NCBI GenBank assembly: GCA_947625245.1
Contig: CANQNO010000004.1
Location: forward strand, 48,986 to 112,985
DNA length: 64,000 nt
Reading direction: 5' to 3'
Source of the DNA: an uncultured Clostridia bacterium
GTDB lineage: Bacteria > Bacillota > Clostridia > Christensenellales > Borkfalkiaceae
The position numbers and the translations under genes were made by a program. This document shows, one piece after another, positions 9,319-56,553 of the stretch (the stretch's first letter is position 1; the number at the start of each line of letters is the position of its first letter). Below the pieces are notes generated by a model. The model worked only from the letters and a program-made list of their open reading frames with translations. It was not told the origin of the DNA and did not search any database.

Positions 9319-9354
9319 AAACAAAAAAGGACGGCGGCAATTTTTGCCGCCGTC
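9319..9354. terminator. Terminator between the small membrane protein and the surface-cluster lipoprotein
   Basis: An 11-bp stem GACGGCGGCAA with its complement (9330-9340 and 9344-9354). On the minus strand it is followed by CCTTTTTTG, giving a strong terminator for the long surface operon. On the plus strand the T-run is poor. Confidence 0.8.
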
Positions 9355-9374: not shown

Positions 9375-10688
9375 TTATGCGTAATAGCCGCAACAGAACA
9401 GCCATTGGTCGTCCTCGCCCGAATTCAGCCCGATCGTTTCCGCCCAGCCGTTACCGTCGGCAAAATACCTTTCCTTAACGGCATATTGGAACAAAAAGTT
9501 TTTCAGTTCTTCCGTAACGGGGTGAACGCCATTTTGGCAAGAGTTAGCATAAGCTTCTATAAAATTGCTGTAATCACATCCGTTGAATTGGAGTTTGATA
9601 TAACTGTCTTTAAAACCCATTCCGCTCTCCGTCATTAACAATGCACTATCCGTGCTGATTCTGGCGTAAAGCAAGCCGCCCATTGTTTTCGTAACGGGAT
9701 CGTATACGTGATAGTACTTATCATCGGGGTTGAAAATTACCAAATCCTCGTCCAAAATTCCGGTTTCGGCATAAATATAGGTAAAAGTTCCCGTGGGCAC
9801 GTCCATGTTCTCGCCCGTATTGAAAGGTCCTTTTGCTTTTACCTCTTCATATACTTCGACGTTTTCGGGAGGTCTGCCCTCATACTTTATGGTAAAGTCG
9901 AAAGAAACGGGATAGTTGTTGCCTATCGTATCTGCGTGAACGGCAAAGATTTTGGTATTCCCGACTTCGTCGTCATTGAGCTGCATTTCCATTCTGAAAT
10001 TCTTTGTATAGGTAGACTCTGAACCGCCGCCGTCGACCGTTCCCTTTTTTGTGTTCCACGCAAAAGTGCCGTTATACTCGTCCACTATCGGATTAACAAT
10101 ATTTGCGGTTATATCCGCCCACGATTCTATGGAATATATGCCGCCCGCCCTCGGGGTAAAGCTGAAAAATACGCCGTCGCTCTTACTGCCCAAAGTTACT
10201 CTGTACGTACCCAATTGGCTAAGCTGAGCCTGTCTGTACTGACCGCTACCGTCGAGCGCGTTATACGAACCCAAAATCTTTTTGATCTCAATAGTAATAT
10301 CTGGAGTTACGTTGTCCACGAAGTTATTGTTGGGATCGTACGTATAAGAAGAAGGCAGTGAACTTAAAGTTACCCTGTAATCGCCGTCGAGGTCGAGAAT
10401 CTGGGCAAAACCCCTCTCGCTGACCTGCGCGCTGTATACTCCCTCTTCGCCGGACCACTGTGCAAAAATAGGTTGGGGAGGATAGAAAGGTCTGCCATCT
10501 TCATCGACAAGGAAAACTCTGAAAACGTCATGCCCGTCTTCCTCATCTCCGCCGGTTGAACCGCCCGTATTATCGGTTATTGTCGGATCCGGCGTATTTT
10601 GAGGAGGATTAAAACTTCCGCATCCGACTTGAACGGAAATTATAATTGTTAAAACCAACAAAATCAATACTGTTAAAGTCTTTTTCAA
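9375..10688 (-). CDS. Secreted lipoprotein with beta-rich domains, last gene of the surface cluster
   Basis: A 437-residue exported protein with an N-terminal signal (residues 1-22) and a likely lipidated Cys23 (QVGC; the -3 residue is atypical). A Pro/Thr/Gly-rich linker follows (24-55). Residues 55-130 look like a small beta-sandwich resembling SpaA/CNA-B or carboxypeptidase-regulatory folds. Residues 140-300 include GVFFSFTPRAGGIYSIES, similar to bacterial pre-peptidase C-terminal beta-domains. The C-terminal 140 residues are unrecognised. The start is TTG at 10688, overlapping the stop of the VWA gene, with AGGAGG nine bases upstream. It is the last gene before a terminator. Function is unknown; location outside the membrane is well supported. 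Confidence 0.72.
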   Translation of the reverse strand: MKKTLTVLILLVLTIIISVQVGCGSFNPPQNTPDPTITDNTGGSTGGDEEDGHDVFRVFLVDEDGRPFYPPQPIFAQWSGEEGVYSAQVSERGFAQILDLDGDYRVTLSSLPSSYTYDPNNNFVDNVTPDITIEIKKILGSYNALDGSGQYRQAQLSQLGTYRVTLGSKSDGVFFSFTPRAGGIYSIESWADITANIVNPIVDEYNGTFAWNTKKGTVDGGGSESTYTKNFRMEMQLNDDEVGNTKIFAVHADTIGNNYPVSFDFTIKYEGRPPENVEVYEEVKAKGPFNTGENMDVPTGTFTYIYAETGILDEDLVIFNPDDKYYHVYDPVTKTMGGLLYARISTDSALLMTESGMGFKDSYIKLQFNGCDYSNFIEAYANSCQNGVHPVTEELKNFLFQYAVKERYFADGNGWAETIGLNSGEDDQWLFCCGYYA

Positions 10689-13459
10689 TTCGTTACGCCT
10701 CCTTTCTTATCCTTTTTATTTTTCAATCCGAAGAAGCTTACCACGTCTTCCCACTTCAGCTTACGTATAACTATATCCACTACGAATATTACCACCGACG
10801 CTATGAGTAGCGGCACGGTAAGGTCGTTGGTGTATGTGCCCAGTTCGCGCTCATCGTTGACAATTTCAAGCTTGCCGTCCGTTTTGACTACGCCAGTTTC
10901 ATCTATGGCGTTGTGCAGAACGTTGGTTTCGTAAGCTGCAAAAGAATTGTATTCGTCAGTATAGGATATATTAAACGTCGTGCGCGACGCATAGGACATA
11001 TTGTTGTAACTGTATATCAGTCTTATGGAATAACTGCCCAATGCGGAGGTGTCGAATTCATAATAATATCTGTCCGCGTCGAAAGCCATCGTTGCCTGTT
11101 CGATTGTGCCGTCGGGCATTGTTATTTCGGCAATAGCGTAAGCCGAAAGACGCGCACCGGCGGGTACAAGTTCTATATGGGCGTAATTTCCGTTCCTTGC
11201 CACGTCCACCGTGTAGGGGAAAGCGGCTTTATGCGCGGGTATGTTGGTTTCGAGCATATTGTCGAAAAACTTTTGCGCATCGCCGTTCTCTTGCCAATCT
11301 TTAAGCCATTCGCCCGCAAACGAACTTGTAAACGTTGCAACTTTGCCCAAACCGTAATCCCAATAGGAGTAAAGCGGCTGTTGGGTTATTTTGCTGCCCT
11401 TGTTATGGTTGACGGTAAGAACGGATGTGGCGCTCGCCTTGTTATAGCTGTACAGATATCCCCATACGTCGGGTATGGCGGTTCTGTCTACTCCGTCAAG
11501 CACACCGTCCACGCGCCTGGCAACGCTCACCTGTGTTTGTCTGCCGTCGATTACGGTTTCTGTTATGGTGCCGGCAAGCTGACCAAACAGAAGGGAGGGA
11601 ATTTCGCCCGAGTCCTGAGTCTGGTTGGACCAATAATAGTAATTGCCGTGTCCGTTAGCCGCAACCGTTTCGAGCATTTGCTTAGCCTCTTGCGCGGTGG
11701 CGCTTTGCGAAACGCCGTTGGCATTTTCGCCCTGTCTTGCCATATCGAGCACGGACGTGACTATGCCGTCGCCGTACATGTTCTCGGCTATCGTAATTGG
11801 ATTGTCTTCTTCGTTGGTATATGACAAGCCGTCGGTTATGAGCATAACCTGTTTATCGCTGTAATCCAACGCCTTTATCCTGTCGTAAGCAGTTTGCAAA
11901 CCGAGCCCTATATAAGTGCCTTGCATGTTGTCAATTCCCTCTATCTCTTCGATGACGGCATTGCCGTCGCCGACGGGTTTGGGAGTGACTACCGTGCGCA
12001 CGTCGCCCGCAAAGGTGATTACGCATACGTTGTCGCCCGGTTTTAAAAGTTTGACAAGCTCCGCAGCCGCGATTTTGGCGTTTATCATATGGTAATTTTG
12101 TTCCATACTTCTCGAGGCGTCTATTACCAATGTGAACAACCTGGGTGCAGTGTCGTCATTTCTGAAACGTACGGGCAACATATCTTCGAGTTTTCTAAGA
12201 TCCTGCTCTTCTTTGCCCTGAATACCGAGGTCGCCGTACGTCACAAGCGTTTTACCGAATTTGGAGACAACGTTGTCGAGACTTGTGACAAACAGCGTGG
12301 TATTTTTTAATGTGGTTATATCTACGTCGCACAAAATGAATTCGTCGAATACGCTCATTTCCTCAACGGTAAAAGGCACTTCGAGCTCTTCCCTGTGGAT
12401 ATGAATATTGTTGGGCAAAGTAGCCATATAGTCTTCTTTGTCGTAATAATCCACAGTTTTATCGTTTTCATAGATATCCAGCTCCGCAGCGTCGCCGTAA
12501 CGTTCCACTGCGGCTAATACGTTTACCCAATCTTTTGTTATAAACAATATCCTTATATTGCCCTCTACGTTTTGCGTGAAGGCGAACTTGTTGTTGTAGG
12601 GATTTTCGTCCTCTTCCGCCTCTATTCTGACCTCATAGTTGAAATTGCCCGCTTTGGACGTATCGAGACCGAAATTGAAACTGTTGCTGCCGGTGGTCAA
12701 GGTAACGGCTCTCTCTTTGAGCTTTGTTTCGCCCGAATACAGCACGAGGAAAGCCTGCGTTTCGAAGCTTGACTGAACGTTTATCACGGCGTTCTCTTCA
12801 TGCCCCAGATAGGTGTCCTGCGTGACGGTAACGTCCGAAATCTGCACCTCTTTTGCGTCTTCCTTTATTGTGTCGTCGAGGAAGATCGCGTCCACGCGCA
12901 CGTTCTGGGCGTTAAGACCGCTTACGGCGCGCTTTATGGCGTAAGTGTCGCGCGTGTCCGTCTGCTTGCCGTCCGTTATGAGCACCATGCGCTTTATTAC
13001 GTTGTCGCTATACAGCGTACCCGCATATTCCATAGCCTCGGCTATGTTGCTCTCGCTGTCGTCAATATTGTTTTCCTTTACGCTGCCCACATCTTTCTGC
13101 TCGGCAAGCGGGTACAAAAGTTCGTAATCTTTTCCGAAACACACGACGCCGAGTTTTGCGTTTTTAGGCAATTCTATATTCTTTATATAGTTGTCGACCT
13201 CGTCGAGGTTTTTGTTTGCGGAATAGCTTACGTCCGCAACCACATATACCTCCGTTTCGGTTATTACGGTCCTTATACTCGTCCCCGCCGCAATGAAAGC
13301 TATTATCAAGGCAATCACTACGTGCAAAACCATCGACGTGACGTTGTGTCCGTTGACGTTTTTCTTTCTTATAGCCAACGCAAAAGGAATTGCGAAAAGT
13401 GCGACAAGGGGTATTGCGATCAGCAACAGATAGGGATTATCGAAGTTGATACTGCTCAT
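10685..13459 (-). CDS. Membrane protein with two von Willebrand A domains and a GATase1-like middle
   Basis: A 924-residue membrane protein. Two N-terminal membrane helices (about 10-30 and 43-63) are followed by a first VWA domain with a complete MIDAS (DVSYS at 76-80), a beta-sandwich, a glutamine-amidotransferase-like middle (about 300-430), and a second VWA with DASRS at 447-451. A beta domain and one C-terminal membrane helix (about 885-905) follow, with a Lys-rich tail. The start is ATG at 13459, because GGAG lies nine bases upstream; the upstream TTG at 13474 lacks support. It overlaps the preceding VWA gene by 23 bp. Both VWA domains face the same side and could bind metal-dependent partners at the cell surface. 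The domain call is secure, the ligand unknown. Confidence 0.85.
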   Translation of the reverse strand: MSSINFDNPYLLLIAIPLVALFAIPFALAIRKKNVNGHNVTSMVLHVVIALIIAFIAAGTSIRTVITETEVYVVADVSYSANKNLDEVDNYIKNIELPKNAKLGVVCFGKDYELLYPLAEQKDVGSVKENNIDDSESNIAEAMEYAGTLYSDNVIKRMVLITDGKQTDTRDTYAIKRAVSGLNAQNVRVDAIFLDDTIKEDAKEVQISDVTVTQDTYLGHEENAVINVQSSFETQAFLVLYSGETKLKERAVTLTTGSNSFNFGLDTSKAGNFNYEVRIEAEEDENPYNNKFAFTQNVEGNIRILFITKDWVNVLAAVERYGDAAELDIYENDKTVDYYDKEDYMATLPNNIHIHREELEVPFTVEEMSVFDEFILCDVDITTLKNTTLFVTSLDNVVSKFGKTLVTYGDLGIQGKEEQDLRKLEDMLPVRFRNDDTAPRLFTLVIDASRSMEQNYHMINAKIAAAELVKLLKPGDNVCVITFAGDVRTVVTPKPVGDGNAVIEEIEGIDNMQGTYIGLGLQTAYDRIKALDYSDKQVMLITDGLSYTNEEDNPITIAENMYGDGIVTSVLDMARQGENANGVSQSATAQEAKQMLETVAANGHGNYYYWSNQTQDSGEIPSLLFGQLAGTITETVIDGRQTQVSVARRVDGVLDGVDRTAIPDVWGYLYSYNKASATSVLTVNHNKGSKITQQPLYSYWDYGLGKVATFTSSFAGEWLKDWQENGDAQKFFDNMLETNIPAHKAAFPYTVDVARNGNYAHIELVPAGARLSAYAIAEITMPDGTIEQATMAFDADRYYYEFDTSALGSYSIRLIYSYNNMSYASRTTFNISYTDEYNSFAAYETNVLHNAIDETGVVKTDGKLEIVNDERELGTYTNDLTVPLLIASVVIFVVDIVIRKLKWEDVVSFFGLKNKKDKKGGVTN

Positions 13460-15284
13460 ATGTGTACACTCCAAAATCTGCTACCGCTATTACAGCGAAG
13501 ATAATCAAAAATGCAATTATACTGTCATAAATGCCGTTGCGCATATTGTTTTCGGCTATGCCGCGGACTATGAGCATTGACTCGGTAGGGTTGGGTACCC
13601 GCTCCGCCTCGGGCAAGGACGAGCACACGTTGAACGTGCGCACGGACTTGTCGTTCATGGTCATGGTTACCGTATAACTGCCAACTTCGCTTAAACGGAA
13701 TTCGCATACGGCTATGCTTGTATCGGGATAGTATTCCTTACCGCCGGGCGCTTGGACATAAAGGCTTTCGGCACCAGGAACTATGTTGATTTCAAGCGTA
13801 TCGCCCGCATAATAGGACGTGCCGTTTATAATTGCGGGGAAAGAGTAATTCAAGAGATTTGCGGTGAGAAGGGAATAGTCCATTGAAAGGGTGAACGCCG
13901 CGCTGTCGTGCAAGTCAAAGGCGAAAACCACTTCCCTGTTGCCGTAAGCGTTAGTGCCGGCGAAGATAAGCGGGCTGCCGTCGAGCGTCGCAAGCGTGGT
14001 GAACCTTCCGCTAAGTCCTATGCGGACGTATTTGGAAACTTCGAAGTCTTTAGCCGTGATTCCGCTCAAAAGGTTTTTCACCGCTTTTGCCGTGGACTTG
14101 GAAAAAGTCGCCGGCGAAGAAGGATATGAATCGCCCTGATAGTTGAAATTCGTTCCGCCGAGACTCGACTGCGGGTTAAAAAACCACACCGCGCCGTCCT
14201 GCGGAAGTTCTTCGGGGGTAAAAGAATCGAATACATACAGGTCGTATCCCGATTTTTGCTTGTAATCCTCGGTCTTTACCACCTCTATCTGCGAGTTACC
14301 CGCAGATATGAGACCCGCCTGAATATAGAACGGATAGTCGCTGACTATAAGCGTCCTCGAAGAATTTTCGTAATCGACGTTGTAAATAACAGCTTCGTTG
14401 TCGAGACCGAGTATGTCGCCGTTGGTTATTGCCACACGCGCCGATTTAAGCTGGATCCTGTTTTCGCATACCAGCTCGAACGGGGTGGGCGTTCCGCCGA
14501 CTACGTTGACGCTGCCCAAAACCGCGGGCGCGCTTTCGCCGTCGAGATACAGTTCAAGCCCCAAAGAAGCGTCGTTCACATAGGACATCGCCGTACCCCT
14601 TACCACTACGCTGCCGTTTTCTACGCTGTACGATAAATCCGAAACCGCATAATTTTCCCCTTCCGAAGCTATGTTCAGAACGGTCATGTTTTCGGTTTGA
14701 CCGTAATTTTTATCGGTTACGAGATAAATGTCAACAGAGTGGTTTGCGTCGAAAAGCGCCTGCGCCTTGCTGACAAGGTCGGCTGTGCCCGTCTCGCAAT
14801 AGCTGACTTCGAGGTCGGAGAGAAGCTTTTTGCACCTCTCCTTATCGGTGTAATTCTCGAATATAGTATCGGTGGTGTTGCCGACGAAAATCAGGGAGTA
14901 TGCGCTGCCCTTGAATGCGTCGTCGATCATGCCCTCGATTTTATCCTTTGCCTTGTCGAAGCGGGTTTGTCCCCCCTCGACTATGTTCATGCTTCCGCTG
15001 CCGTCGAGAATAAAGCAATATTCCTTTGCCGCACGGGGGATAACGAACACAGGTTGCGTGACCGAAACGGCAAGCATTATGACCGCCGCTATCTGCAACA
15101 ATAAACTGATCAATCCGACGATGCGGCTAATGGGTCTGCGCTTTTTTATAAAGCGTTCGCTGAGATTCCAGAGGTAAATCGACGACACCGTTTTTTCGGT
15201 GTATTTGTTTTTTATGATGTAAATTAAAATCAATATGGGGATTGCAATAAGCAAGAGCAATCCGAGAGGATATAGTAAACTCAT
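13437..15284 (-). CDS. BatA-like VWA membrane protein
   Basis: A 615-residue protein with the N-terminal arrangement of aerotolerance (Bat) proteins: a membrane helix (5-25), a short basic loop, a second helix (55-76), then a VWA domain with MIDAS DGSGS at 94-98. The middle of the protein is beta-rich and contains a segment that resembles an amidotransferase-like fold. A last helix (about 588-610) anchors the C-terminus. Its ATG overlaps the stop of the DUF58 gene (ATGA), showing coupled translation. MoxR, DUF58 and BatA-type genes commonly travel together, and the MoxR ATPase is thought to remodel or insert metal into VWA partners. No substrate is known here. Confidence 0.85.
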   Translation of the reverse strand: MSLLYPLGLLLLIAIPILILIYIIKNKYTEKTVSSIYLWNLSERFIKKRRPISRIVGLISLLLQIAAVIMLAVSVTQPVFVIPRAAKEYCFILDGSGSMNIVEGGQTRFDKAKDKIEGMIDDAFKGSAYSLIFVGNTTDTIFENYTDKERCKKLLSDLEVSYCETGTADLVSKAQALFDANHSVDIYLVTDKNYGQTENMTVLNIASEGENYAVSDLSYSVENGSVVVRGTAMSYVNDASLGLELYLDGESAPAVLGSVNVVGGTPTPFELVCENRIQLKSARVAITNGDILGLDNEAVIYNVDYENSSRTLIVSDYPFYIQAGLISAGNSQIEVVKTEDYKQKSGYDLYVFDSFTPEELPQDGAVWFFNPQSSLGGTNFNYQGDSYPSSPATFSKSTAKAVKNLLSGITAKDFEVSKYVRIGLSGRFTTLATLDGSPLIFAGTNAYGNREVVFAFDLHDSAAFTLSMDYSLLTANLLNYSFPAIINGTSYYAGDTLEINIVPGAESLYVQAPGGKEYYPDTSIAVCEFRLSEVGSYTVTMTMNDKSVRTFNVCSSLPEAERVPNPTESMLIVRGIAENNMRNGIYDSIIAFLIIFAVIAVADFGVYTYEQYQLR

Positions 15285-16165
15285 TTGAATACCCCCATCG
15301 AAACCAATTTGTTAAAGAAAATTTCGCCGAGAGATTCGTCCGACGCGACGAGCGCGTATTCCCCGCCTATGGCGTGGCAAAAGCCGCCTATTCTGTTGGT
15401 GGAATATTCGAGCGCTCTCGCATAGGCGCGAAGAATTTCTTTGTTTATGTTTTTGCGATATATTTTGCTCAAATCCTCACTGTCGAAGAAATTCATTTTA
15501 CCGTGCGCGCGGGGATTAAGTTCCTCTTTGGAGAGAATCTGCACACAGAGGATATCCCTCTTCTTGGTTGCAAGATGGCTGAGCCCCGCCTCATAATCGC
15601 TGTCGGTGAGAAAATCCGAAATTATTATCGAAAGCCCGTCGCCGTAGCCCACGGTGGAAGGAAGTATGGCGTCGGAAATCTTAGTATCCCCGCCGTCGAA
15701 CTCCACGGTGTTTAATATTCCGATATTGTTCAGATAGCTCTCTTTGCCCAGCATGTTGGTAATCAATTCTTCAACGTGATCGTCCTTGATAAGATATATG
15801 GATACCTTATCCATCTGGCTTATGGATATATAAGCGAACGTGGCGGCAAGCTTTATTGCCAGCTCGTCCTTTTTGTCTTTGCCGAAATGCATAGACTTGC
15901 TCGCGTCGATATATATCCGCGTATGCACTTGTCTCTCGTCGAGATATAATTTGAGATAGAGTTTTTCGAAGCGCGCAAAAGCGTTCCAGTCGATTTTGGT
16001 AATGTCGTCGCCCGGAATATAGTCGCGGAAGTCGGCAAATTCGCACGAAGAACCGTAAGTTTTGCTCTTATGGTTGCCGCCGAACTGCCCCGCAACGTTG
16101 TTTTTTATGCGCGATTCGAGTCTCTCAACCTGTTCGAGAAACTCTTCTGTCACAACAAGACTCAT
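15281..16165 (-). CDS. DUF58 domain protein
   Basis: A 294-residue soluble protein with the family hallmark GDDITKIDWNAFAR near residues 51-64, followed by a VWA-like Rossmann fold with a partial MIDAS (DASKS). DUF58 proteins are usually encoded directly after MoxR and before VWA genes, exactly as here, and are presumed adaptors between the ATPase and the VWA proteins. The gene starts seven bases after moxR and ends overlapping the next VWA gene. Unlike many DUF58 proteins, it has no N-terminal membrane helices. Family certain, role inferred. Confidence 0.9.
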   Translation of the reverse strand: MSLVVTEEFLEQVERLESRIKNNVAGQFGGNHKSKTYGSSCEFADFRDYIPGDDITKIDWNAFARFEKLYLKLYLDERQVHTRIYIDASKSMHFGKDKKDELAIKLAATFAYISISQMDKVSIYLIKDDHVEELITNMLGKESYLNNIGILNTVEFDGGDTKISDAILPSTVGYGDGLSIIISDFLTDSDYEAGLSHLATKKRDILCVQILSKEELNPRAHGKMNFFDSEDLSKIYRKNINKEILRAYARALEYSTNRIGGFCHAIGGEYALVASDESLGEIFFNKLVSMGVFK

Positions 16166-16172
16166 ATTTAGA

Positions 16173-17318
16173 TTACTTCGTTTCGCTGACTATTTGTTTG
16201 ATGATATCGTCCACGTTAAGATTATCGCTTATCGCGGTATAGGTGATTTTTATTCTGTGGCGCAATACGGGGCAGGCAAGAGCTTTTACGTCATCGTACG
16301 ACACGTTATATCTGCCGTGCATGAGAGCGCGCACCTTTGCGCAGGTAATGAGCGCCTGTGCCGCACGGGGCGAAGCGCCGAACTTGACATACTTTTTGGT
16401 AGTCGCCAATGCGCCGCTAACTTCGGGGTGGGTGTTGGTAACCAGTTTTGCGGCGAATTTGCGCACGTCCTTAATAACGGGCACGGTTTTGGCAAGCTCG
16501 CGCATGGCAAGAATAGTCTCGCCGTCCACTACCGCTTCGGCAGTTTCGTCCATGGTCACCTGCGTCATATCTACTATGTTTTCAATTTCTTCAGGCGCGG
16601 GGAAGTTAACTATGAGTTTGAACATGAAACGGTCGACCTGCGCCTCGGGCAGAGGATACGTACCGTCCTGCTCTATGGGGTTCTGCGTTGCGAGCACGAA
16701 GAAAGGCTCCGAAAGCTTATAGGTCTGCTTTGCTACCGTTACTTTGTGTTCCTGCATAACTTCAAGCATGGAAGATTGGGTTTTGGGCGTCGCACGGTTG
16801 ATTTCATCGGCGAGCACGAGGTTGGCGAATATGGGACCTCTCTGGAATACCATATTCATTTTGCCCTTTTCATCCTGTTCGATTATGTTGGTACCGGTTA
16901 CGTCCGAAGGCATTAAGTCGGGCGTGAACTGTATACGCGAGAAAGGCAGGCTTAAAGTTTTGCCGAGCGAACGTACAAGCCTTGTTTTGCCGACGCCTGG
17001 AACGCCTTCCAAAAGCACGTTGCCGCCCGCGATAATCGCACAGATCACGTTGTCGATAATGTCTTCCATACCGACGATATCTTTTGCGAGTTCGCTCTTT
17101 ATTTTGGTTATTGCCGCACCGAATTCCTTTACCTGTTCGGGGGATTCGGCTTCTATTTCCTCAACGGGAGTCTCCGCAGGGGTCTCTGCGGGAGCTTCGG
17201 CTATGGGCTGCTCCTCCGCCTCAGCGGTTACGGGCGTTTCGGTTTCAACCGCATTTTCTTCGGTTTCGTTCAATGCTTCGGGTGTTACGTTCTTATTGTT
17301 TTTCTTATTTTTTTTCAT
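16173..17318 (-). CDS. moxR: MoxR-family AAA+ ATPase
   Basis: A 381-residue AAA+ ATPase of the MoxR chaperone group. Walker A is GVPGVGKT (105-112). Walker B is LADEINRA near 168-175, and further motifs typical of MoxR follow (ATQNPIEQDGTYPLPEAQ region, then the alpha-helical lid). An unusual N-terminal extension of about 65 residues is first Lys/Asn-rich, then acidic and Pro/Ala/Glu/Thr-rich, probably disordered. GAGG lies seven bases before the ATG. It is the energy source of the surface cluster, followed by DUF58 and two VWA genes. MoxR proteins drive maturation of metal- or multi-subunit protein complexes; the client here is unknown. Confidence 0.93.
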   Translation of the reverse strand: MKKNKKNNKNVTPEALNETEENAVETETPVTAEAEEQPIAEAPAETPAETPVEEIEAESPEQVKEFGAAITKIKSELAKDIVGMEDIIDNVICAIIAGGNVLLEGVPGVGKTRLVRSLGKTLSLPFSRIQFTPDLMPSDVTGTNIIEQDEKGKMNMVFQRGPIFANLVLADEINRATPKTQSSMLEVMQEHKVTVAKQTYKLSEPFFVLATQNPIEQDGTYPLPEAQVDRFMFKLIVNFPAPEEIENIVDMTQVTMDETAEAVVDGETILAMRELAKTVPVIKDVRKFAAKLVTNTHPEVSGALATTKKYVKFGASPRAAQALITCAKVRALMHGRYNVSYDDVKALACPVLRHRIKITYTAISDNLNVDDIIKQIVSETK

Positions 17319-17330
17319 GGTTTTCCTCGA

Positions 17331-18824: not shown

Positions 18825-18855
18825 AATTTATTCCAAAGGTTTAAAAAGCTCAGAC

Positions 18856-19947: not shown

Positions 19948-19969
19948 AGTTTTTAAAAATTTTTCAAGT

Positions 19970-19997
19970 GTTCCCACTGCCCGAAGGCAGCGGGAAC
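19970..19997 (-). other. Intercistronic hairpin capped by a UUCG tetraloop
   Basis: In the minus-strand transcript GTTCCCGCTGCC pairs with GGCAGTGGGAAC (12 bp, one G-U pair) around TTCG, closed by C-G. It lies between the giant lipoprotein stop and the next ATG. There is no immediate T-run, so it looks more like an mRNA-stabilising or processing element than a terminator. Confidence 0.7.
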
Positions 19998-20037
19998 ACT
20001 GAAACCTTAGTAATATGTTCCGAAAGATAAACTCTCG

Positions 20038-23000
20038 TTATTCGTTAGCAGCCTCTACCGTAAGAACAAGTTTACCTGTCTTTTGAGATCCTTCGCCGCT
20101 TACTGTAATTTTGCCCGTAACGGTGAACGTTCCCTTAAATGTGCACGAACATTCTTCAACGGTGTAAGTTGCTTCCAGCTCATCAAGCCAAAGAATCGCG
20201 GTAGCATCAGCCGTACTGCAGTACATCGAAATTTGTTCTGTACCGCCAAAGATGTTTTCCTTTCCGGTATCGCCATTGGGATTGTAAATCTTGTATTTAA
20301 TGTAGCCGGAGCCTACGCCGCCGTCGGGAACCTTAATCGAAACGTCAAGCCTTATCTTTGTATGAACGGTTACCGTTGCGGTGTAATGATGGTCATCCGC
20401 ACCTCTAGTTACTTGGACAGACGCATAATCGTAAGGAATCACGTAGTCTTTGGTAGACGTCTGAACTTTGCTGATTAAAAATGCGAGCTTGCACTGATCG
20501 TTCCATTCTGCAGCCGGAAGTATAATATTGGAAGAGAACTCACTGCCGGAGCCTTTGGGAACGGAAATAATGTTGCCCAACACTTTATGCTCTTCACCAA
20601 CGTCGAAATTATATTTCAGATTGAAATCACCAGCCGTGTATTTGCTATCAAAGCCGTTAACCTTAACTTCAATATGAAGCTTAGGCTTAATGTTGACGGT
20701 CACTTGATAAGAATTGTCGGATCCGCTCTGTGTGCAATCCAAAATCAAATAGTCGGTGTTCACAGTCGTCCTTGCCGAGTCTACCTTAAACGTCACGCCG
20801 TTTTCAATGCCTTCGAAAGTCTTGAAGTGGTATGTGGCTTTATTGCCCTCTTTCATGTCGGCTTTAACGAGCTTGAGATCCTGCTTCTTAGTTTCACCTA
20901 CTTTATCGAATACTTGTATTGCAGCTTCAGAGAAAGTAGTGTACTCATCGATAAGACCGTTGACGGTAATCGTAACGCGCGGCTGTTCTTTAACCGTGAT
21001 AGTAAAGATATGCTCCCAAGGTTTATCGCCGTTAGTGAACTCGCAAGATTCGGGTGCAACGATATAGTCAGAATCGTTGGTTGCACTTTGCGTGATCTCT
21101 ACCTTAAAGGTATCCTTCCAGTCGCCCTTGATATAATGTTCCTTAATCGTATTAGTCCAGTAATTTTCGTTGGTTGCGTTAGCAATAACGGTTATACTTG
21201 TACTTGCGATTACGGTCGTTGTATCATCCTTTACTACGTAACTGAAAGTGAACTGCTTAGTCACGGCATCGTTGGCAAAGCCCTTCATAACGACTGTTAC
21301 GTGAGGCATAGGTTCGCACTTAATGGTGAGAACATGCGCTCCGCCGACTTCTGAGAAGGTTGCGGTTCTGAACATGTAAGGCTGGTTGTAAACTTCTACT
21401 TCCGCCGAGTAATCCGCTTGCCAGCTGTCGAGATAGATGTAATCTACGAACGACGTTTCGGCGCCTGCGGGTATTTTAACGGTGCGTGTGCATACATCAA
21501 CGCCTTCCGTCCCTTTGATCTTAATCGACAAGGTTGTAGCAACAGTTCTAACCTCGTCCTGTAGGCCTGTAAGTTGAACCTTTACAGGAGTCTTCTTCGT
21601 TGCGTTGACTACAATTTCGTGCAAGCCTTCGGTCGTCTTAGCGGTGGCTTCGCTTGTTATCGCATATGCACATTCGGCATCGGAATTAGACGCGGTAACT
21701 GTAAACGTATCCTTCCAATCGGGCAACCAGAGATATTCGCAGAAATCTGCGGTTGCATTTTCGGGAACGGTTACGGTATAGGTACCTACAGCGCTCTCTC
21801 CGTCTTTGACTTCAAGCTTGAGTGCAAATTGTTTAGTGCCCGTTTCGTTGTTTAAGTTGGGAACGGAAACCTTAACTTTATTGAGCTGTTCTACGTTGAT
21901 CTGGATAATATGCGTTCCGTCAGTGGTCTTACATTCGGAAGCAGTCTGAGCCAGCTTATACGTGCAACCCAAAGTGCCGCTGGTTCCGAGCGTAACGGTT
22001 GCAGTATAGGTGTCTTTCCAATCCAACACGTAAATAAACTTATTAAGGTCTTCTTTAGTTACGTTCCTGTCGACGGTAAAGTTGTATATACCAACCTGAG
22101 TGTTGCCATCCTTAAGAGTTATTGTAAGGGTGAATGCCGTTGTGGGAGTTCCGTCCGAAACAAGGTCGGGGATGGAAATCTTAACGGGTATGTTCTGCTT
22201 GATCGTGATAGTAACATGACCAGTGCCCTTTTCGTCGTAAGATACGAGACTCGCTTCGGCATACCACTGCTTGATATTGTTTTGTGACGTTGTAAGGCTT
22301 GAACTCTTCTTGTTTGTGAGGTCGCCGCCGATAAGGTGGAAATTAAGGGTTTCGCACTCGGGATAGCGGGTCCAGGTGCCTTTAATTGTCTTGCCGCCGC
22401 CCTCTTCATTGGGCACAGCATTAGCAAACGATACGTCTATGCGCGATGTGCCGGATTTGCCGGAAGTCCACGACTTGTTGGGACGCTGATCCCAAACGCC
22501 GTAGGGTTCCGCTATGAGGATGTTATGGGTAGCCTGACTCGTATACTCTTCGGGGATAACTATGGTGTATTCGATGGGCTTATAGTTCGATGTCTGCTCA
22601 TACACGATTTCGCGTGTAACAACGAGCTGAGCATCTTCTTCAGTCCATTTTACCTGGAACGACGGCGCAACGAAGTAACTGTTCGCCATGTTGTAGTAGT
22701 CGACGGAGATTACGTAAAGCGCACCGCTTTCGAAATCAGCCGCACTCACATAGAAAGTAACTGTACACTGCTTGTTGGCGAGATTTGTGGACTTGCTTTC
22801 AAGCTGTTCGCCGTCTTTGTGCAGGAATATGGTACTGAATCTGCCTTGCTGATATTTACTAGCTTCGGCAGTACTATGGAATTTGTAGGTTACGGTAATG
22901 CTGTACTTAAGAGTACCGACAAGCGTACCCGAACCTGTTTTGTCCTGTGCGGTTACTTCCGCATCGGTAAGGAATTCGTAATCCTGAAGATTAGTACTCT

Positions 23001-26000
23001 TACCTCTTATGATCAATTGCTGACCTTCGGGTGCAAACATTTCGGTACTGCCCTTTAACTTGCCGGAAACTTCGTCAAGCGTAACGTGAACCGTCGCGGA
23101 GGAAATGAGTCTGTCCGTAGTCTTTTCGTGCAGTTCTATGCTTACGTCAGAAGCTGCAGATGTGCCGGGAAGCTCTACGTTAGCCGTAACCGTTATGCGG
23201 TCGCTTATGGTTACCGACGCTTTTTCGGTGGTTTCGTCAAGTACAAGTTTTTGGATATCGCTTGCAAAGTAGCCCGAGTTAGCGGGAGAGGTTATCTTGA
23301 CGAGATAGGTGCCGCCCATAGGCAAATATGCAGTAACGGTCTGCTTTGCCGATGCTTCCGTGTCGTTAGCGTCGAGAGTATATTTGAAAGTAGCCGTTGC
23401 TTTTGTTGCGGGCGTTTCGTCAGAGTACAGATAGAACTCTACGGTATATTCGCCGCTTACAAAGTGCGCGGGAACAGTGAGTTCGATATCGACTTTGGTA
23501 CGCTGTTTAACAGTAAGAGTTACGGAACCCGTTTCGCCGCCTTCGTCAACTGTGACTGTATACTTAGTCTCGGTTGTTGTATAACCTGTATCAAGACCTT
23601 TGGTTATGGCAACCGTAAAGCCTTGGGCATTTTTATCCAACCAAATATCGCCGGTGGCTTTGTTGCCTTCGACTATGGAAAGATTGCCGCTTCCCGCATT
23701 TGTTGTGGTAGTGCCCTTATAGAAAGTTACTTCGATGGGCTCATCCGCTTTAGCCTGGAAGTTTTCGGGAAGATTTACCGTAACGGATATCTTTACCCTC
23801 TTTTCGATCGTGACGGTGACATCATTACCAACCGTTCCCGATTTAGATGTGGGCATGGTGTAGTGGTCGACGTCGGCGCCCTGTGCGGTCGTGTGGATAT
23901 AAACCGTTCCGCTGGTCTTTGCCGCCGAATAAATGCTTATTTCGGTTTGGGCGGTACCCTTTACTGCCGTGCCCTCTGCGTAGCCGTACAAATAAGAATT
24001 TGCCGTGCTGCCGGAACTTGTGGACAATTTGAGAATAATAGTTCCCTCAAAATCGGTAGGATGTTCTACGATGACTTTTGTTGTACCGCCGTTCTTAGAG
24101 TAGCTCTTCGAACTTGTAATGGTCTTTGTAAAGTCAACGTATTTTCCCGTGGAATCCTTTGCAATGACTTTCCAATAGAAGTAGTTGCCAAACTTTGATG
24201 TATCGGTATTGGTATACGTCAATTTGAAAGTCTTTTTAGCAATTTGGTCTTCAGGCCAGGACGCATCCTTATTGAACGTTTTAACAAGCGTATACTGACC
24301 TGCCTCAATAGTTTGACCGCTGCTTTCGTTGGTTGCAAGCCATACTTCGTAACTCGTCGCGAGATTGCGCTCATCGACAGAGAACTCTACATACGGTACA
24401 TAAGTTCCCGTCGTCAAGGTAGAGGCTATATTCAAAGTAGGTTTAAGACTCATGTTTACAGTCGTGGGATAAGCTACATCGCTGTCGTTGTTTGCAATAA
24501 CAACAATGGAGTACTTAGCTTCCGGAACTGTAAGCGTGGAAGTCGTGCTGTTCGTGAAATATTCAACCGATTTGATTTCGGCTGCCGAAGCGCTTATCCA
24601 TTTTGCAGGAGAAGGATTGCTTGCGCTGTAATCAATGTAATAAACGGTTACATTGCGCAAATCGCTTTCGGACTGCATAGAGAAGCGGTAGTAATTTGCT
24701 TCGGCTTCGGTAAACGAATATACTTTGAAATATTCCGTATCGGTAAAGCTTGCGGTAATGTTAGCCTTTGTAGAAGCTATATCGGTGCCGCCGTCCATAT
24801 GGATCAGTACGAATTTGACGGTAGGATACTCTTCCTCTGCGCCCGTATAGCTAACAGAAATGGTTACGTCGCTTTCTGTAGTCAACGCAAAGGTATTGAA
24901 ACGATCCGACTTGCCGTTTATTTTTGTTGAAGTGCCTACGGTTACCGTAAATTTAACGTTCTTGCCTGTCAGGTCGGTCTTGCTGTAAAGAATATAGCCG
25001 CCAGCCGCGAGGTGACCTGCATAGGGGATATCTTTCTTCTCCGCAGAGAACGTAGCCGTTATTTCCTTGTTGGTTTCGATCTGTTCGGCGTTCATCGCCT
25101 CTATCTTCAAGGTGAACTCACGGGGATATTCCTCTCCATTCTCTGTGGTTTCCATTTTGAGATAGTACTCGGTGGCCTCACCGCTGAACAAACGGGTATA
25201 GCTCTTTGTTGCGGATGCATTGGATGTGGCATTCAAAACGCTTACACTGCTGTCGTTCCTTTTTGCGGACATAGTGAAATTGTTAAATGCTTTTTCCGAT
25301 GTAAGAGTTGCCCTGTACATGTCTACTTTAGAAAGATTCAACAGGATAAAGTAGTAACCATGTATGATTTCGCTGGAACCCCAAGGAGCTACATAGCCGT
25401 CTTTTTCGGTAATCTTATATTCATCTCCCAATGTATAGGAATTGAGTTTAACAAGACGTAAGCTGCATGTGGATACATAGCGCTCGGACGCGAACGAGCT
25501 TGTAGTTATCTTTAAGCTCTTTGCACCCTCTTTAATTTCGATAAGTTTTTCGGCTGTAAGAGCGGCAGCTTCTTCGGAGTCAATTGTATAAGAGTAACCA
25601 TTAAAAGAACTGGAAGAACCCGAAGCCACCATTATATATTTACCTGCAGTCAAACCGGAAATATCGCATTTTGCGGATTCGTAGATAGGGTAAACAAATT
25701 CTTTGGCGTTTTCAACGGTTATGTCGGTGGGTATTTTGGTCAACGTAAAGTTGCCAGTTAAGGTACCGTTGCCGTAAAACCTTACCTGGAAGAACTTTTC
25801 GGTGCCATCAAGCTTAAACACAATGGCGGCGCTGTTTTTGCCGTTTGAAGTGAATCTGCTTTCGATAGTAGTTTTACCGTCGAAAGCAATATATAAACCT
25901 TCAGCAGTCCAATAACCGCCAGCGCTTATTGCTGTCAAGTCGTAAGTAAGCTTATATACGCCTGCTCCCCAGGTTTCAGGCTCTTTAAAGTAATAAGTCC

Positions 26001-27444
26001 TGTTGTAGGTGGCTGAATAACCGGGTAGACTTTTTCCTTCGAGCATGCCCGCGGGACCGAGACCGAGCGCGACAGCGACGTTGAACGTCAAATTTACGGG
26101 TGTTGTGGTGCGGGGATTGATAGAAATGCTCGACTTGCCGTCCACAACTATGCAGTTCGAAGGCATGGGCACGGGAGTTTTATCCGCCGCAGTCAGGTCT
26201 TCGGCGGTAGCTATGCAAATTTCGTAGCCTGCCGTGTCTTCCCAAATGGGAATAAAGCTTACACGTGCGCCGCCGTTAGAGGACTGCGCAAGCGAAAGCA
26301 CTTTCTTTTGCCCGCCATCGTTAACTTTTGCGGCAATCCAAACTCCGTCAACGGAAACGTTAACCGTATACGCGCGTGTACCGTAATATTTTATTTCGCC
26401 CGTGGTGTCTTCTGCGGAGGAATAATATACGGCGTCGCCCTTTGCGTTAACGCCGACGTGGTGAACGTTCTGCTCTTTGAGAGAAGCGTACCACTCGGTA
26501 AATTCGCTTATTTCGCTTTCGCCTTTTGCTTGCTCAAAGGTTTTGTATACATTGTAAACTTTAAGATAGGATTCGGAAAGACCGCACTCGCAGACGCCGC
26601 TATCGAATTCGTGTTCAGCCCTGTTCTTCTCGCCTGCCGTATCGGGGTGACAGGTAGAAGTCTGCCAGTGCTGGGTCTCGTCGAAATTCCACGCCCACGG
26701 GAAATTATTATGGTCGTGCGCGCGAACGTATCCGCATGTGTCGCAAGTATCGTCGTTGCCGAAATCATGGGCGGCTTTTTCCACTTGCTCGTCGTCATGA
26801 TGCCAGCAAGTGTATTCCTTCCAGTGATACTGCGGGTCGTTATTGTGTATCCAACCGGACAGAGTGTGCTGATGCTCGGCATCTCTGTCGTAATCGCAAC
26901 CGTCGCACTTGCTGCCGTTGGTGAAAGTGTGAGATTGGGGATTTATTTTTTCGTTTCCATGCTCCGTGCAGTCATAAGTGGTCCAGTGCTGGGTCTCGTC
27001 GTATCTTACGATCTCATGGTGCACGTGGTCGGGGGTTCTGTCCAAACCGCATTTGTCGCAGAGATTGTCGTCCCCCCAAACATGGTCCTCTTCATTGAAT
27101 TTCTCGGTATCATGGTGCTCGCACGAATATTCCTGCCAATGCTTGCCGTTTATGTCGCCGTCGTTTTTCCACACAAGGGTATGTACGTGGCGAACGTAAT
27201 CGCAGACATTGCAGCTAACATCGTTTTCGTCGTCGAATTCATGCGCTGCGGTACCGGTGTGCTGGTGACATTCGGTACATTCGAGCCAATGGTTTTCGTC
27301 GTCGAACGAGTACGTTTGGGACCAGTTATGCGTGTGCTCTTCTTCCGCAGGTTGGCAAGCAAGCAATCCGCCGCCCAAAGCGAGAAGCATGCACATTACG
27401 GTGACAAACATAACTGTTTTCCAGATTTTAAAACCTTTTGCCAT
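20038..27444 (-). CDS. Giant surface lipoprotein with N-terminal His/Cys repeats and C-terminal beta repeats
   Basis: A 2468-residue exported lipoprotein. The start is ATG at 27444, preceded by AAAGGAG at six bases; the signal sequence ends in LLAC with lipid Cys30. Residues 37-291 hold five tandem His/Cys-rich units. Residues 300-1150 are a series of beta-sandwich-like segments, some resembling pre-peptidase C-terminal domains. From roughly residue 1170 to the end there are tandem beta repeats; four consecutive units share a D-W-K-D-T-(Y/F) motif and a period near 100 residues. No sortase motif, protease site or transmembrane segment is present after the signal, so it would stand on the outer face of the membrane on its lipid anchor. 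First gene of the MoxR-VWA cluster. Role unknown: adhesion, stalk or metal capture are possibilities. Confidence 0.85.
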   Translation of the reverse strand: MAKGFKIWKTVMFVTVMCMLLALGGGLLACQPAEEEHTHNWSQTYSFDDENHWLECTECHQHTGTAAHEFDDENDVSCNVCDYVRHVHTLVWKNDGDINGKHWQEYSCEHHDTEKFNEEDHVWGDDNLCDKCGLDRTPDHVHHEIVRYDETQHWTTYDCTEHGNEKINPQSHTFTNGSKCDGCDYDRDAEHQHTLSGWIHNNDPQYHWKEYTCWHHDDEQVEKAAHDFGNDDTCDTCGYVRAHDHNNFPWAWNFDETQHWQTSTCHPDTAGEKNRAEHEFDSGVCECGLSESYLKVYNVYKTFEQAKGESEISEFTEWYASLKEQNVHHVGVNAKGDAVYYSSAEDTTGEIKYYGTRAYTVNVSVDGVWIAAKVNDGGQKKVLSLAQSSNGGARVSFIPIWEDTAGYEICIATAEDLTAADKTPVPMPSNCIVVDGKSSISINPRTTTPVNLTFNVAVALGLGPAGMLEGKSLPGYSATYNRTYYFKEPETWGAGVYKLTYDLTAISAGGYWTAEGLYIAFDGKTTIESRFTSNGKNSAAIVFKLDGTEKFFQVRFYGNGTLTGNFTLTKIPTDITVENAKEFVYPIYESAKCDISGLTAGKYIMVASGSSSSFNGYSYTIDSEEAAALTAEKLIEIKEGAKSLKITTSSFASERYVSTCSLRLVKLNSYTLGDEYKITEKDGYVAPWGSSEIIHGYYFILLNLSKVDMYRATLTSEKAFNNFTMSAKRNDSSVSVLNATSNASATKSYTRLFSGEATEYYLKMETTENGEEYPREFTLKIEAMNAEQIETNKEITATFSAEKKDIPYAGHLAAGGYILYSKTDLTGKNVKFTVTVGTSTKINGKSDRFNTFALTTESDVTISVSYTGAEEEYPTVKFVLIHMDGGTDIASTKANITASFTDTEYFKVYSFTEAEANYYRFSMQSESDLRNVTVYYIDYSASNPSPAKWISASAAEIKSVEYFTNSTTSTLTVPEAKYSIVVIANNDSDVAYPTTVNMSLKPTLNIASTLTTGTYVPYVEFSVDERNLATSYEVWLATNESSGQTIEAGQYTLVKTFNKDASWPEDQIAKKTFKLTYTNTDTSKFGNYFYWKVIAKDSTGKYVDFTKTITSSKSYSKNGGTTKVIVEHPTDFEGTIILKLSTSSGSTANSYLYGYAEGTAVKGTAQTEISIYSAAKTSGTVYIHTTAQGADVDHYTMPTSKSGTVGNDVTVTIEKRVKISVTVNLPENFQAKADEPIEVTFYKGTTTTNAGSGNLSIVEGNKATGDIWLDKNAQGFTVAITKGLDTGYTTTETKYTVTVDEGGETGSVTLTVKQRTKVDIELTVPAHFVSGEYTVEFYLYSDETPATKATATFKYTLDANDTEASAKQTVTAYLPMGGTYLVKITSPANSGYFASDIQKLVLDETTEKASVTISDRITVTANVELPGTSAASDVSIELHEKTTDRLISSATVHVTLDEVSGKLKGSTEMFAPEGQQLIIRGKSTNLQDYEFLTDAEVTAQDKTGSGTLVGTLKYSITVTYKFHSTAEASKYQQGRFSTIFLHKDGEQLESKSTNLANKQCTVTFYVSAADFESGALYVISVDYYNMANSYFVAPSFQVKWTEEDAQLVVTREIVYEQTSNYKPIEYTIVIPEEYTSQATHNILIAEPYGVWDQRPNKSWTSGKSGTSRIDVSFANAVPNEEGGGKTIKGTWTRYPECETLNFHLIGGDLTNKKSSSLTTSQNNIKQWYAEASLVSYDEKGTGHVTITIKQNIPVKISIPDLVSDGTPTTAFTLTITLKDGNTQVGIYNFTVDRNVTKEDLNKFIYVLDWKDTYTATVTLGTSGTLGCTYKLAQTASECKTTDGTHIIQINVEQLNKVKVSVPNLNNETGTKQFALKLEVKDGESAVGTYTVTVPENATADFCEYLWLPDWKDTFTVTASNSDAECAYAITSEATAKTTEGLHEIVVNATKKTPVKVQLTGLQDEVRTVATTLSIKIKGTEGVDVCTRTVKIPAGAETSFVDYIYLDSWQADYSAEVEVYNQPYMFRTATFSEVGGAHVLTIKCEPMPHVTVVMKGFANDAVTKQFTFSYVVKDDTTTVIASTSITVIANATNENYWTNTIKEHYIKGDWKDTFKVEITQSATNDSDYIVAPESCEFTNGDKPWEHIFTITVKEQPRVTITVNGLIDEYTTFSEAAIQVFDKVGETKKQDLKLVKADMKEGNKATYHFKTFEGIENGVTFKVDSARTTVNTDYLILDCTQSGSDNSYQVTVNIKPKLHIEVKVNGFDSKYTAGDFNLKYNFDVGEEHKVLGNIISVPKGSGSEFSSNIILPAAEWNDQCKLAFLISKVQTSTKDYVIPYDYASVQVTRGADDHHYTATVTVHTKIRLDVSIKVPDGGVGSGYIKYKIYNPNGDTGKENIFGGTEQISMYCSTADATAILWLDELEATYTVEECSCTFKGTFTVTGKITVSGEGSQKTGKLVLTVEAANE
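20950..22300 (-). repeat. Diverged ~100-residue tandem repeats with a DWKDT motif
   Basis: DWKDTY, DWKDTF, SWQADY and DWKDTF occur near 22015, 21715, 21420 and 21115, spaced 295-305 bp. Each is followed about 25-35 residues later by a strand ending in a His/Glu-I-x-V pattern. Flanking units on both sides are recognisable but more diverged. Confidence 0.75.
26572..27336 (-). repeat. Five tandem His/Cys-rich repeats in the giant lipoprotein
   Basis: Units of about 45-55 residues (37-291) share the order His-rich start, a central HW (NHW, KHW, QHW, YHW, QHW), a Cys and His pair shortly after, a second His before Phe/Trp (AHEF, DHVW, SHTF, AHDF, EHEF), then CxxC (CNVC, CDKC, CDGC, CDTC) or CxC (CEC). 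The last unit is the most degenerate. Confidence 0.85.
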
Positions 27445-27812: not shown

Positions 27813-27843
27813 CGGGGCGCGGACGGTTGACGTCCGCGCCCCG
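27813..27843 (-). terminator. Hairpin at the end of the gerA operon
   Basis: A 12-bp perfect stem (27813-27824 with 27832-27843) around GGTTGAC, seven bases past the gerAC stop. The following T-run on the minus strand is short (CATTTTG), so termination strength is uncertain. Confidence 0.65.
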
Positions 27844-56506: not shown

Positions 56507-56509
56507 TAA

Positions 56510-56553
56510 ACGCCTCCGCAAAAACTATGTATAATAGCTTACTGCGGAGGCGT
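56510..56553 (-). promoter_or_regulatory. Inverted repeat burying the spoIVA ribosome site
   Basis: ACGCCTCCGCA and TGCGGAGGCGT, perfect 11-base arms at 56510-56520 and 56543-56553 with a 22-base loop. In the minus-strand mRNA the 3' arm contains GGAGG of spoIVA, and the loop contains TATTATACATAG, a possible -10 (sigma-A- or sigma-E-like). Confidence 0.7.

What the first reader, a model, noticed from the sequence alone, without database searches (positions are those of the whole stretch)
9375..27444. Eight-gene MoxR-VWA surface cluster with a 2468-residue lipoprotein
Seen: one strand, tight gaps or overlaps, lipoprotein signals on three products, MoxR, DUF58, one BatA-like VWA, one double-VWA protein, and a coiled membrane protein. 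Known: MoxR/DUF58/VWA sets act as chaperone modules on partner proteins. Inference: the module assembles or remodels the giant lipoprotein and its partners outside the membrane. I know of no described system with this combination.
Basis: partly seen in the sequence, partly recalled or inferred. Interest (0 to 1): 0.8.

Follow-up and report, generated by a model that had tools for sequence, protein, structure and literature searches.

The report
MoxR–VWA operon carrying surface lipoproteins
A conserved bacterial membrane machine that usually sits beside an ABC transporter is, in one group of gut Clostridia, almost always followed by a gene for a large surface lipoprotein, which suggests that it assembles or operates those surface proteins.

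Summary
In detail: eight same-strand genes (9375-27444), gaps of 60 nt or less, a terminator-like hairpin after the last gene, MoxR, DUF58, a BatA-type VWA protein and a double-VWA protein (dVWA). It is not a chance neighbourhood: the same genome has a second, diverged seven-gene copy, without the giant. The five-gene core (coil-MoxR-DUF58-BatA-dVWA) is widespread in the phylum. Outside the window's order it usually follows ABC-transporter genes, with a lipoprotein next to dVWA in 1 of 35 loci read. In the order plus 13 Clostridia MAGs of untold order, 40 of 41 readable loci have a lipoprotein directly after dVWA: the window's LPc family (24) or a BspA-type LRR lipoprotein (16). The 35 of these dVWAs put on a tree form one clade (SH-aLRT 100). 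LPc is predicted to be CnaB-like plus collagenase-PPC-like, with a C-terminal domain of unidentified fold. Best explanation: an ATP-driven transmembrane VWA module that assembles, presents or remodels large surface lipoproteins (inferred, not shown). Closest described: RL3499-RL3502/Bat operons for the core, and bifidobacterial PFNA (MoxR-DUF58 beside a giant FN3 protein). A new variant of a known kind. The giant is not the invariant partner; the lipoprotein after dVWA is.

The parts
20038..27444 (-). Giant lipoprotein, 2468 aa: lipobox (LLAC), five HW motifs spaced about 50-54 aa with five CxxC near the N-terminus, and at least five CnaB/prealbumin-like repeats (by eye; four of them spaced about 97 aa) near the C-terminus
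   Evidence: No Pfam family at E<=0.01. Partly similar proteins beside the module in L008, L013, L016, L019; none beside the second module.
18856..19977 (-). LPb: Cys/His-rich lipoprotein, 373-aa ORF (probable start at the internal ATG near 19947)
   Evidence: 25% identity over 300 aa to the B-module LPb. LPb directly before 'coil' in the window, B, L007, L008, L019, L052, L053, L055, all in one subclade of the tree.
17331..18824 (-). 'coil': membrane protein, 3 predicted TM segments, conserved loop (70-127, inferred cytosolic), about 350-aa C-terminal part inferred outside and probably helical (by eye); only marginal resemblance to DUF4175
   Evidence: a homologue precedes MoxR in most loci whose upstream side is held, inside and outside the order.
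16173..17318 (-). MoxR AAA+ ATPase
   Evidence: AAA_3 2.4e-62, AAA_lid_2 6.5e-19; 72% identical to the B-module MoxR.
15281..16165 (-). DUF58 protein (no TM found; DxSxS motif present by eye)
   Evidence: DUF58 8.5e-29; 72% identical to the B copy.
13437..15284 (-). BatA-type membrane VWA protein; VWA domain inferred outside the membrane
   Evidence: BatA 7.2e-9, VWA_2 1.7e-9; 41% identity to the B copy; TM at 1, 51, 583 with a K/R-rich loop between the first two.
10685..13474 (-). dVWA: two N-terminal TMs, VWA1, GATase1-like domain apparently split by VWA2, C-terminal TM and basic tail (RKLKWED)
   Evidence: (profile: PDB chain 2gk3 aligned at 303-433, VWA chains at 442-624; window protein: PF07090 at 666-743).
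9375..10688 (-). LPc: lipoprotein family, CnaB-like (52-138) + collagenase-PPC/CBD-like (137-269) + conserved C-terminal domain (about 300-437, ending WLFCCGYYA)
   Evidence: directly after dVWA in 24 of 24 LPc loci.
9330..9354 (-). Intrinsic-terminator-like hairpin with T-run just after LPc (likely operon 3' end)
   Evidence: 11-bp stem, 8 G-C pairs.
27814..27842 (-). G+C-rich 12-bp hairpin between the upstream Ger(x)C-like gene and the giant gene (possible terminator of the upstream unit)
   Evidence: Read directly; not listed by the scan.

Best explanation
The five-gene core is an ATP-driven transmembrane module. MoxR (with DUF58) works in the cytosol. BatA, dVWA and the coil protein span the membrane, with VWA domains, the GATase-like domain and the coil protein's large domain outside. 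In other orders the core usually sits with a GldA/GldF-like ABC transporter. In the window's order it has been re-coupled to large surface lipoproteins, which it assembles, presents or remodels on the outer face of the membrane. The lipoprotein encoded directly after dVWA (LPc here) is the dedicated partner, probably through dVWA; the giant and LPb are further, exchangeable surface components. Shown: gene content, conservation, partner difference between clades, predicted domain make-up. Inferred from sequence: topology and the direction of the partner switch. Inferred only: that lipoproteins are clients, that dVWA is the contact, and how force would be passed on.
For: Lipoprotein directly after dVWA in 40 of 41 readable loci (24 LPc, 16 LRR; 27 of 28 loci labelled as the window's order and 13 of 13 MAG contigs of untold order), against 0 of 20 loci from other orders of the class and 1 of 15 from outside the class. 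With my lipobox rule, lipoprotein genes are 68 of 111 within two genes of the core, 7 of 86 at four or more genes away (Fisher 1.9e-15) and 1 of 80 near the core in the class loci. The 35 lipoprotein-coupled dVWAs on the tree form one side of a branch, SH-aLRT 100; LPc (24) and LRR (11) each one side of a branch, 100 and 99. Full-length LPc always with the module: 11 hits in 9 of 200 genomes and 13 hits in 13 of 13 MAG genomes. LPc distances partially correlate best with dVWA (0.54 against at most 0.21 for the other four; 22 loci). LPc resembles adhesin modules in fold. The juxtamembrane tail of dVWA differs by partner class (KLKWED-like, KFKFKW-like, RRLN-like). Duplicate module in one genome. 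Precedents: the PFNA authors suggest that MoxR folds FN3; MoxR protein p618 with p892 in extracellular viral tails (passage).
Against: No expression, interaction or phenotype data. Adjacency and shared ancestry also fit co-regulation without a client relation, and the partial correlations are weak (non-independent pairs; operon linkage gives the same sign). The B module lacks the giant. The two lipoprotein classes after dVWA are unrelated in fold, so one recognition mode is not obvious. One order locus (L146) has an ABC-like context and no lipoprotein. The lipobox rule is crude: in the window it misses LPc itself and flags one probable cytosolic enzyme (42788-44068). Topology rests on hydropathy and charge.
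Confidence: 0.5

Rival explanations
1. The membrane VWA proteins are themselves the main clients or the adhesive parts: MoxR/DUF58 mature BatA/dVWA (e.g. MIDAS metal loading), and VWA proteins plus lipoproteins together form one surface adhesion complex.
For: The D, S, S residues of both dVWA DxSxS motifs are invariant over 14 sequences; VWA domains are inferred outside; LPc carries CnaB/PPC-like folds and the LRR partners are BspA type; Borrelia VWFA protein BB0172 near a MoxR gene is reported to bind an integrin (abstract passage).
Against: The same VWA pair occurs in other orders beside an ABC transporter and without a surface lipoprotein in the next gene, so the VWA proteins probably have a more general role.
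Confidence: 0.25
2. A general envelope-integrity operon of the RL3499-RL3502/Bat kind; the lipoproteins are merely co-transcribed surface genes that profit from the same promoter.
For: The core matches the described kind: the MRP-type MoxR of Rhizobium is reported important for membrane integrity and morphology (passages); the B module does without a giant and large partners vary.
Against: Passengers should vary: the gene after dVWA encodes a lipoprotein in 40 of 41 loci, full-length LPc was never found without the core in the 213 genomes searched, and lipoproteins are rare four or more genes away (7 of 86).
Confidence: 0.15
3. Metal-insertion chaperone on the NorQD/CoxD pattern: the module loads metal (e.g. 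zinc) into the HW/CxxC repeats of the giant and LPb.
For: Five HW and five CxxC motifs in the giant and Cys/His clusters in LPb; NorQD MoxR/VWA metal insertion is described (abstracts only).
Against: The LPc members listed have no or one CxxC, the LRR partners scanned show no metal-site family, and LPb occurs in only one subclade; zinc sites of this kind generally need no ATPase (recalled).
Confidence: 0.06
4. A sporulation-linked surface module, given the adjacent GerA-type set and SpoIVA in the window.
For: Ger(x)A/B/C hits at 27854-31629 and SpoIVA at 55034-56521.
Against: A hairpin lies between the Ger(x)C gene and the operon, and I noticed no GerA-like set in the other loci's gene lists, though I did not search for one.
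Confidence: 0.03

Closest known systems
RL3499-RL3502 operon of Rhizobium leguminosarum ('broadly conserved operon') and Bat operons (Bacteroides, Leptospira, Borrelia)
   Same: MoxR Proper-type ATPase, DUF58 and Bat/VWA membrane proteins in one region (passages in PMC5700661 and PMC3893208). The gene make-up of RL3501/RL3502 is recalled; that paper is not held.
   Different: Here a double-VWA protein with a split GATase1-like domain, a coil membrane protein, no BatD/TPR match, and surface lipoproteins.
PFNA operon of bifidobacteria (pkb2-fn3-MoxR-DUF58-tgm)
   Same: MoxR and DUF58 genes beside a large, divergent surface protein linked to adhesion; its authors suggest that MoxR may fold FN3 (passages and figure legend of PMC8430577, passages of PMC6803598).
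   Different: No BatA/dVWA among the genes listed there; it has a kinase and a transglutaminase instead. The window's giant is a lipoprotein without a Pfam FN3 match. Different phylum (recalled).
GldA/GldF-like ABC + MoxR-VWA loci of other Clostridia and other classes of the phylum
   Same: The same core genes in the same order; families tested on L103, and partly L107 and L114, only.
   Different: Neighbour is an ABC-2 transporter (L103: GldA model 4.5e-71, GldF 2.2e-10, both below curated cut-offs) plus a 2-TM protein; no lipoprotein directly after dVWA in 34 of 35.
RavA-ViaA and NorQ-NorD
   Same: MoxR AAA+ plus VWA cofactor acting on partner proteins (abstracts/passages).
   Different: VWA partners there are not multi-TM surface-facing proteins (recalled); clients are respiratory enzymes.
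MoxR-vWA-beta-propeller ternary conflict systems (bpMoxR)
   Same: The bpMoxR Pfam model matches the window MoxR above its cut-off (2.1e-13).
   Different: No beta-propeller match among the eight proteins; AAA_3 scores far higher.

Membership tests
MoxR AAA+ ATPase | AAA_3 domain plus AAA lid | tested here: met
   PF07726 2.4e-62, PF17863 6.5e-19; Walker A GVPGVGKT and Walker B LADEIN visible in the translation (motif names recalled).
Broadly conserved MoxR-DUF58-BatA-large membrane protein operon (RL3499-RL3502 kind) | MoxR, DUF58 and BatA-type VWA genes adjacent on one strand | tested here: met
Broadly conserved MoxR-DUF58-BatA-large membrane protein operon (RL3499-RL3502 kind) | Fourth gene homologous to RL3502 itself | not tested
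   Rhizobium sequence not fetched; paper not held. GATase1_like found in 9 of 14 dVWAs at E<=0.01.
Bat (Bacteroides aerotolerance) operon | BatD and TPR (BatC/BatE) genes | tested here: not met
   No such Pfam match among the eight proteins at E<=1.
PFNA operon | Pkb2 kinase and transglutaminase genes | tested here: not met
   No such Pfam/NCBIfam match among the eight proteins.
PFNA operon | Giant surface protein with FN3 domains next to MoxR-DUF58 | tested here: not met
   Giant present, but no FN3 match at E<=1.
bpMoxR ternary system | Beta-propeller plus vWA partner set | tested here: not met
   No propeller model among the eight proteins.
Bacterial lipoproteins (giant, LPb) | N-terminal hydrophobic segment with lipobox Cys | tested here: met
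   Pattern and hydropathy rule flags both in the window. No SignalP.
Bacterial lipoproteins (window LPc) | N-terminal hydrophobic segment with lipobox Cys | tested here: inconclusive
   Cys 23 after a hydrophobic segment, but Q at -3 (QVGC), not flagged by the rule; the LPc of the 22 other loci are flagged.
DUF4175 (coil protein) | PF13779 match above cut-off | tested here: inconclusive
   Best E 0.029 in 3 of 15 members and 0.037 in L114, below cut-off; the own-genome scan gives only one weak hit elsewhere.
LPc C-terminal domain: known fold | Match to a solved structure | tested here: inconclusive
CnaB/prealbumin-like and PPC/collagen-binding-domain-like folds (LPc 52-138, 137-269) | Structural match over most of the domain | tested here: met

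The most novel reading that the evidence does not exclude
A dedicated, ATP-powered surface-display machine for giant lipoproteins in gut Clostridia: a MoxR-driven transmembrane VWA complex was uncoupled once from an ABC transporter and given a 'cargo slot', in which unrelated adhesin scaffolds (LPc or BspA-type LRR lipoproteins) act as adaptors that dock the exchangeable giant lipoproteins. The LPc C-terminal domain, also present in other large ORFs of several LPc-module genomes, is the adaptor or client tag.
Probability: 0.25. Interest if true: 0.85.

Novelty: new variant of a known kind. Interest (0 to 1): 0.58.

Why it matters
Natural clients of MoxR-DUF58-BatA operons are mostly unknown (recalled). 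Here genomics points to named candidates: a lipoprotein family (LPc) found only next to dVWA in the genomes searched, and an independent LRR family in the same slot. That makes a concrete test possible. It also links a widespread chaperone module to the large, variable surface proteins of uncultured gut Clostridia, and suggests a switch of partner (ABC transporter to surface lipoproteins) on the tree of one module.

Tried and rejected

L142 and L147 end before the gene after dVWA and were not counted. Of the 51 genomes with any dVWA-profile match, those whose listed matches cover only a short VWA stretch were not fetched. Of the class hits 20 loci were read, of the phylum hits 15. L007-L020 were found with a pattern from two LPc-type dVWAs, so they lean to the LPc type; no lipoprotein was used to find any locus. 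In one search an antisense ORF hid the LRR lipoprotein of L070; corrected. The counts were made before that correction, cover L007-L020 and L052-L070, and leave out the window, the B module and L140-L147. L105 and L113 show no ABC-sized genes before the core; they were labelled apart and merged with ABC.

Full report
What is there. The window lies in a 1.42-Mb, 94% complete genome of an unnamed species; public records that carry the closest relatives are titled uncultured Clostridia/Clostridiales MAGs. The giant gene most likely starts at the ATG at 27444 behind AAGGAG, giving the stated 2468 residues. A terminator-like hairpin with a T-run follows the last stop at 9354-9330, and a 12-bp G+C-rich hairpin at 27842-27814 lies between the upstream Ger(x)C-like gene and the giant (read directly). 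The region as a whole has no excess of terminator-like sites over shuffles.

Domain content. Pfam gives MoxR (AAA_3 2.4e-62), DUF58 (8.5e-29), BatA plus VWA on the 615-aa protein, and two VWA stretches on the 929-aa protein. A profile of 14 homologues of the latter matches PDB chain 2gk3 at 303-433 and VWA chains at 442-624 (that 2gk3 is GATase-like is recalled), and the window protein matches PF07090 GATase1_like at 666-743 (below cut-off, 6.5e-4; 9 of 14 members at E<=0.01). I read this as a GATase1-like domain split by the second VWA. TM segments and K/R-rich loops put the VWA domains of both proteins outside and a short basic tail of dVWA inside; this is inference from hydropathy and charge. 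The D, S, S residues of both dVWA DxSxS motifs are invariant over 14 sequences. The three lipoproteins have no Pfam match above cut-off. The window's LPc has an atypical lipobox (QVGC); the other LPc members look ordinary.

A second copy in the same genome. A dVWA search of the genome found a second locus. It contains LPb(367)-coil(635)-MoxR(381)-DUF58(294)-BatA(660)-dVWA(962)-LPc(523) on one strand, G000:C1:22222-33775. Identities to the window copies: MoxR and DUF58 72%, dVWA and BatA 41%, LPc 31%, coil 47% over 142 aa and 24% over 350 aa, LPb 25%. No giant lies beside it; the two genes before it look like a histidine kinase and a solute-binding lipoprotein, judged by eye. So seven genes behave as a unit and the giant does not.

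Relatives. Loci were collected through dVWA only, so lipoproteins did not influence the choice. Readable at the gene after dVWA are 41: 28 from genomes labelled as the window's order (the window, the B copy, L008, L052-L070, L140, L141, L143-L146) and 13 public MAG contigs whose order the tools do not tell (L007, L009-L020). In 40 of 41 that gene encodes a lipoprotein on the same strand: LPc in 24 of 24 loci of one dVWA clade, and a BspA-type leucine-rich-repeat lipoprotein in 16 loci of the other type. The LRR assignment is by Pfam for L060, L063, L065 and L066 and by BLAST clustering or a profile for the others; L065 is cut by its contig end; L070 needed correction because an antisense ORF hid the gene. 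The exception, L146, has a 2-TM protein and a 7-TM gene near the core and no lipoprotein next to dVWA. In 28 of the 33 loci at least one lipoprotein of 650 aa or more lies within three genes (this counts the LRR proteins themselves), with changing folds. With the lipobox rule, lipoprotein genes make up 68 of 111 genes within two genes of the core, 7 of 86 genes four or more genes away, and 1 of 80 near the core in the 20 class loci. The rule is crude: in the window it misses LPc and flags one probable enzyme.

Exclusiveness of LPc. Full-length LPc was found in 9 of 200 order genomes, 11 hits, each beside dVWA, and these 9 genomes are exactly those with dVWA hits of E below 1e-80. Every other LPc hit listed covered at most 183 of 455 profile positions (signal region or single domains); the list was truncated at weak E-values. 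In the 13 MAG genomes there is exactly one LPc hit at E<=1e-20 each, at the module locus.

Outside the order. In a sample of 393 class genomes, 94 match dVWA at E<=1e-15 and, by my count of the listing, 57 at 2.5e-43 or better (six of them from the window's order). In 398 phylum genomes 23 match at E<=1e-40, including the window's own; the other 22 are labelled only 'same phylum'. Twenty class loci and fifteen phylum loci were read. By gene size and TM count, a protein of about 310 aa and a permease-like protein, mostly with a 2-TM protein before them, precede coil-MoxR-DUF58-BatA-dVWA in 18 of the 20 class loci, and such a pair in roughly half of the fifteen others. Families were tested on L103 (and partly L107, L114): ABC_tran and ABC-2 permease, nearest Gld models GldA 4.5e-71 and GldF 2.2e-10, both below curated cut-offs. 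A lipoprotein directly after dVWA was seen in 0 of 20 and 1 of 15 (L130).

Tree. In a 70-row dVWA tree the LPc group (24) and the LRR group (11) are each one side of a branch (SH-aLRT 100 and 99), and together they form one side of a branch with SH-aLRT 100 (quick search, no bootstrap, some long branches and uneven composition). With the root among the ABC-type loci, this is one switch from ABC transporter to lipoproteins followed by a change of lipoprotein class. The rooting is an assumption from the wider spread of the ABC type. L140-L147 were read later and are not on the tree. Within the window's genus and family both lipoprotein types occur, which suggests exchange or loss.

How it most likely works. 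MoxR rings with DUF58 on the inside couple ATP hydrolysis through the basic tail of dVWA and the loops of BatA and coil to the domains outside, where they act on lipoproteins: LPc as the fixed partner, LPb and the giant as optional ones. The tail motif differs with the partner class (KLKWED-like in the LPc clade, KFKFKW-like in the LRR clade, RRLN-like in the ABC clade, each with exceptions). Among 22 loci the partial correlation of evolutionary distances is highest for LPc-dVWA (0.54) and BatA-dVWA (0.53), then coil-BatA (0.47); LPc with any other is at most 0.21. These are hints only, since operon linkage and shared history give the same sign. Clienthood itself is not shown.

Known or new. 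The core is the described kind of MoxR-DUF58-BatA operon: RL3499-RL3502 of Rhizobium, with a reported membrane-integrity and morphology phenotype, and Bat operons (passages in PMC5700661 and PMC3893208; the Rhizobium paper is not held). A large adhesin-type protein beside MoxR-DUF58 is described in the bifidobacterial PFNA operon, where the authors suggest that MoxR may fold FN3 (PMC8430577 passages and figure legend, PMC6803598 passages). Full-text searches for MoxR with lipoprotein and Clostridia (no paper), with BspA (no paper), with DUF58 (and 9 papers listed), with surface lipoprotein/adhesin/Clostrid (12 of 52 listed) and with RL3499 (30 of 309 listed) showed no listing that describes this lipoprotein-coupled form; I saw listings only for most of these, and the library lacks most subscription journals. 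I therefore rate it a new variant of a known kind.

Verdict.

Noticed in passing
window 27851-31629 (-): Ger(x)A/B/C-type spore germination set directly upstream of the operon, and stage IV sporulation protein A at 55034-56521, in a genome of only 1.42 Mb.
   Followed up: partly
L102-L121 and L125-L139: ABC-transporter-sized genes (Gld-like where tested) plus a 2-TM protein recur directly before coil-MoxR-DUF58-BatA-dVWA in other Clostridia and other classes; the client of that form is unknown.
   Followed up: partly
L017, L018 upstream of the core: A lipoprotein of about 800 aa lies two genes upstream of the core; in L018 it has Big_2 and pectate-lyase-like domains (Pectate_lyase_4 1e-25); L017 has a related protein.
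   Followed up: no
G118:C1:184111-184416, G118:C23:8097-8387, G182:C8: The LPc C-terminal domain recurs in very large ORFs (1036-2491 aa), one of them three genes after an LPc module (L052).
   Followed up: partly
L070 2346-8499: Long antisense ORFs (997 and 1257 aa) cover the true lipoprotein genes in this locus; simple longest-ORF calling misses them.
   Followed up: yes
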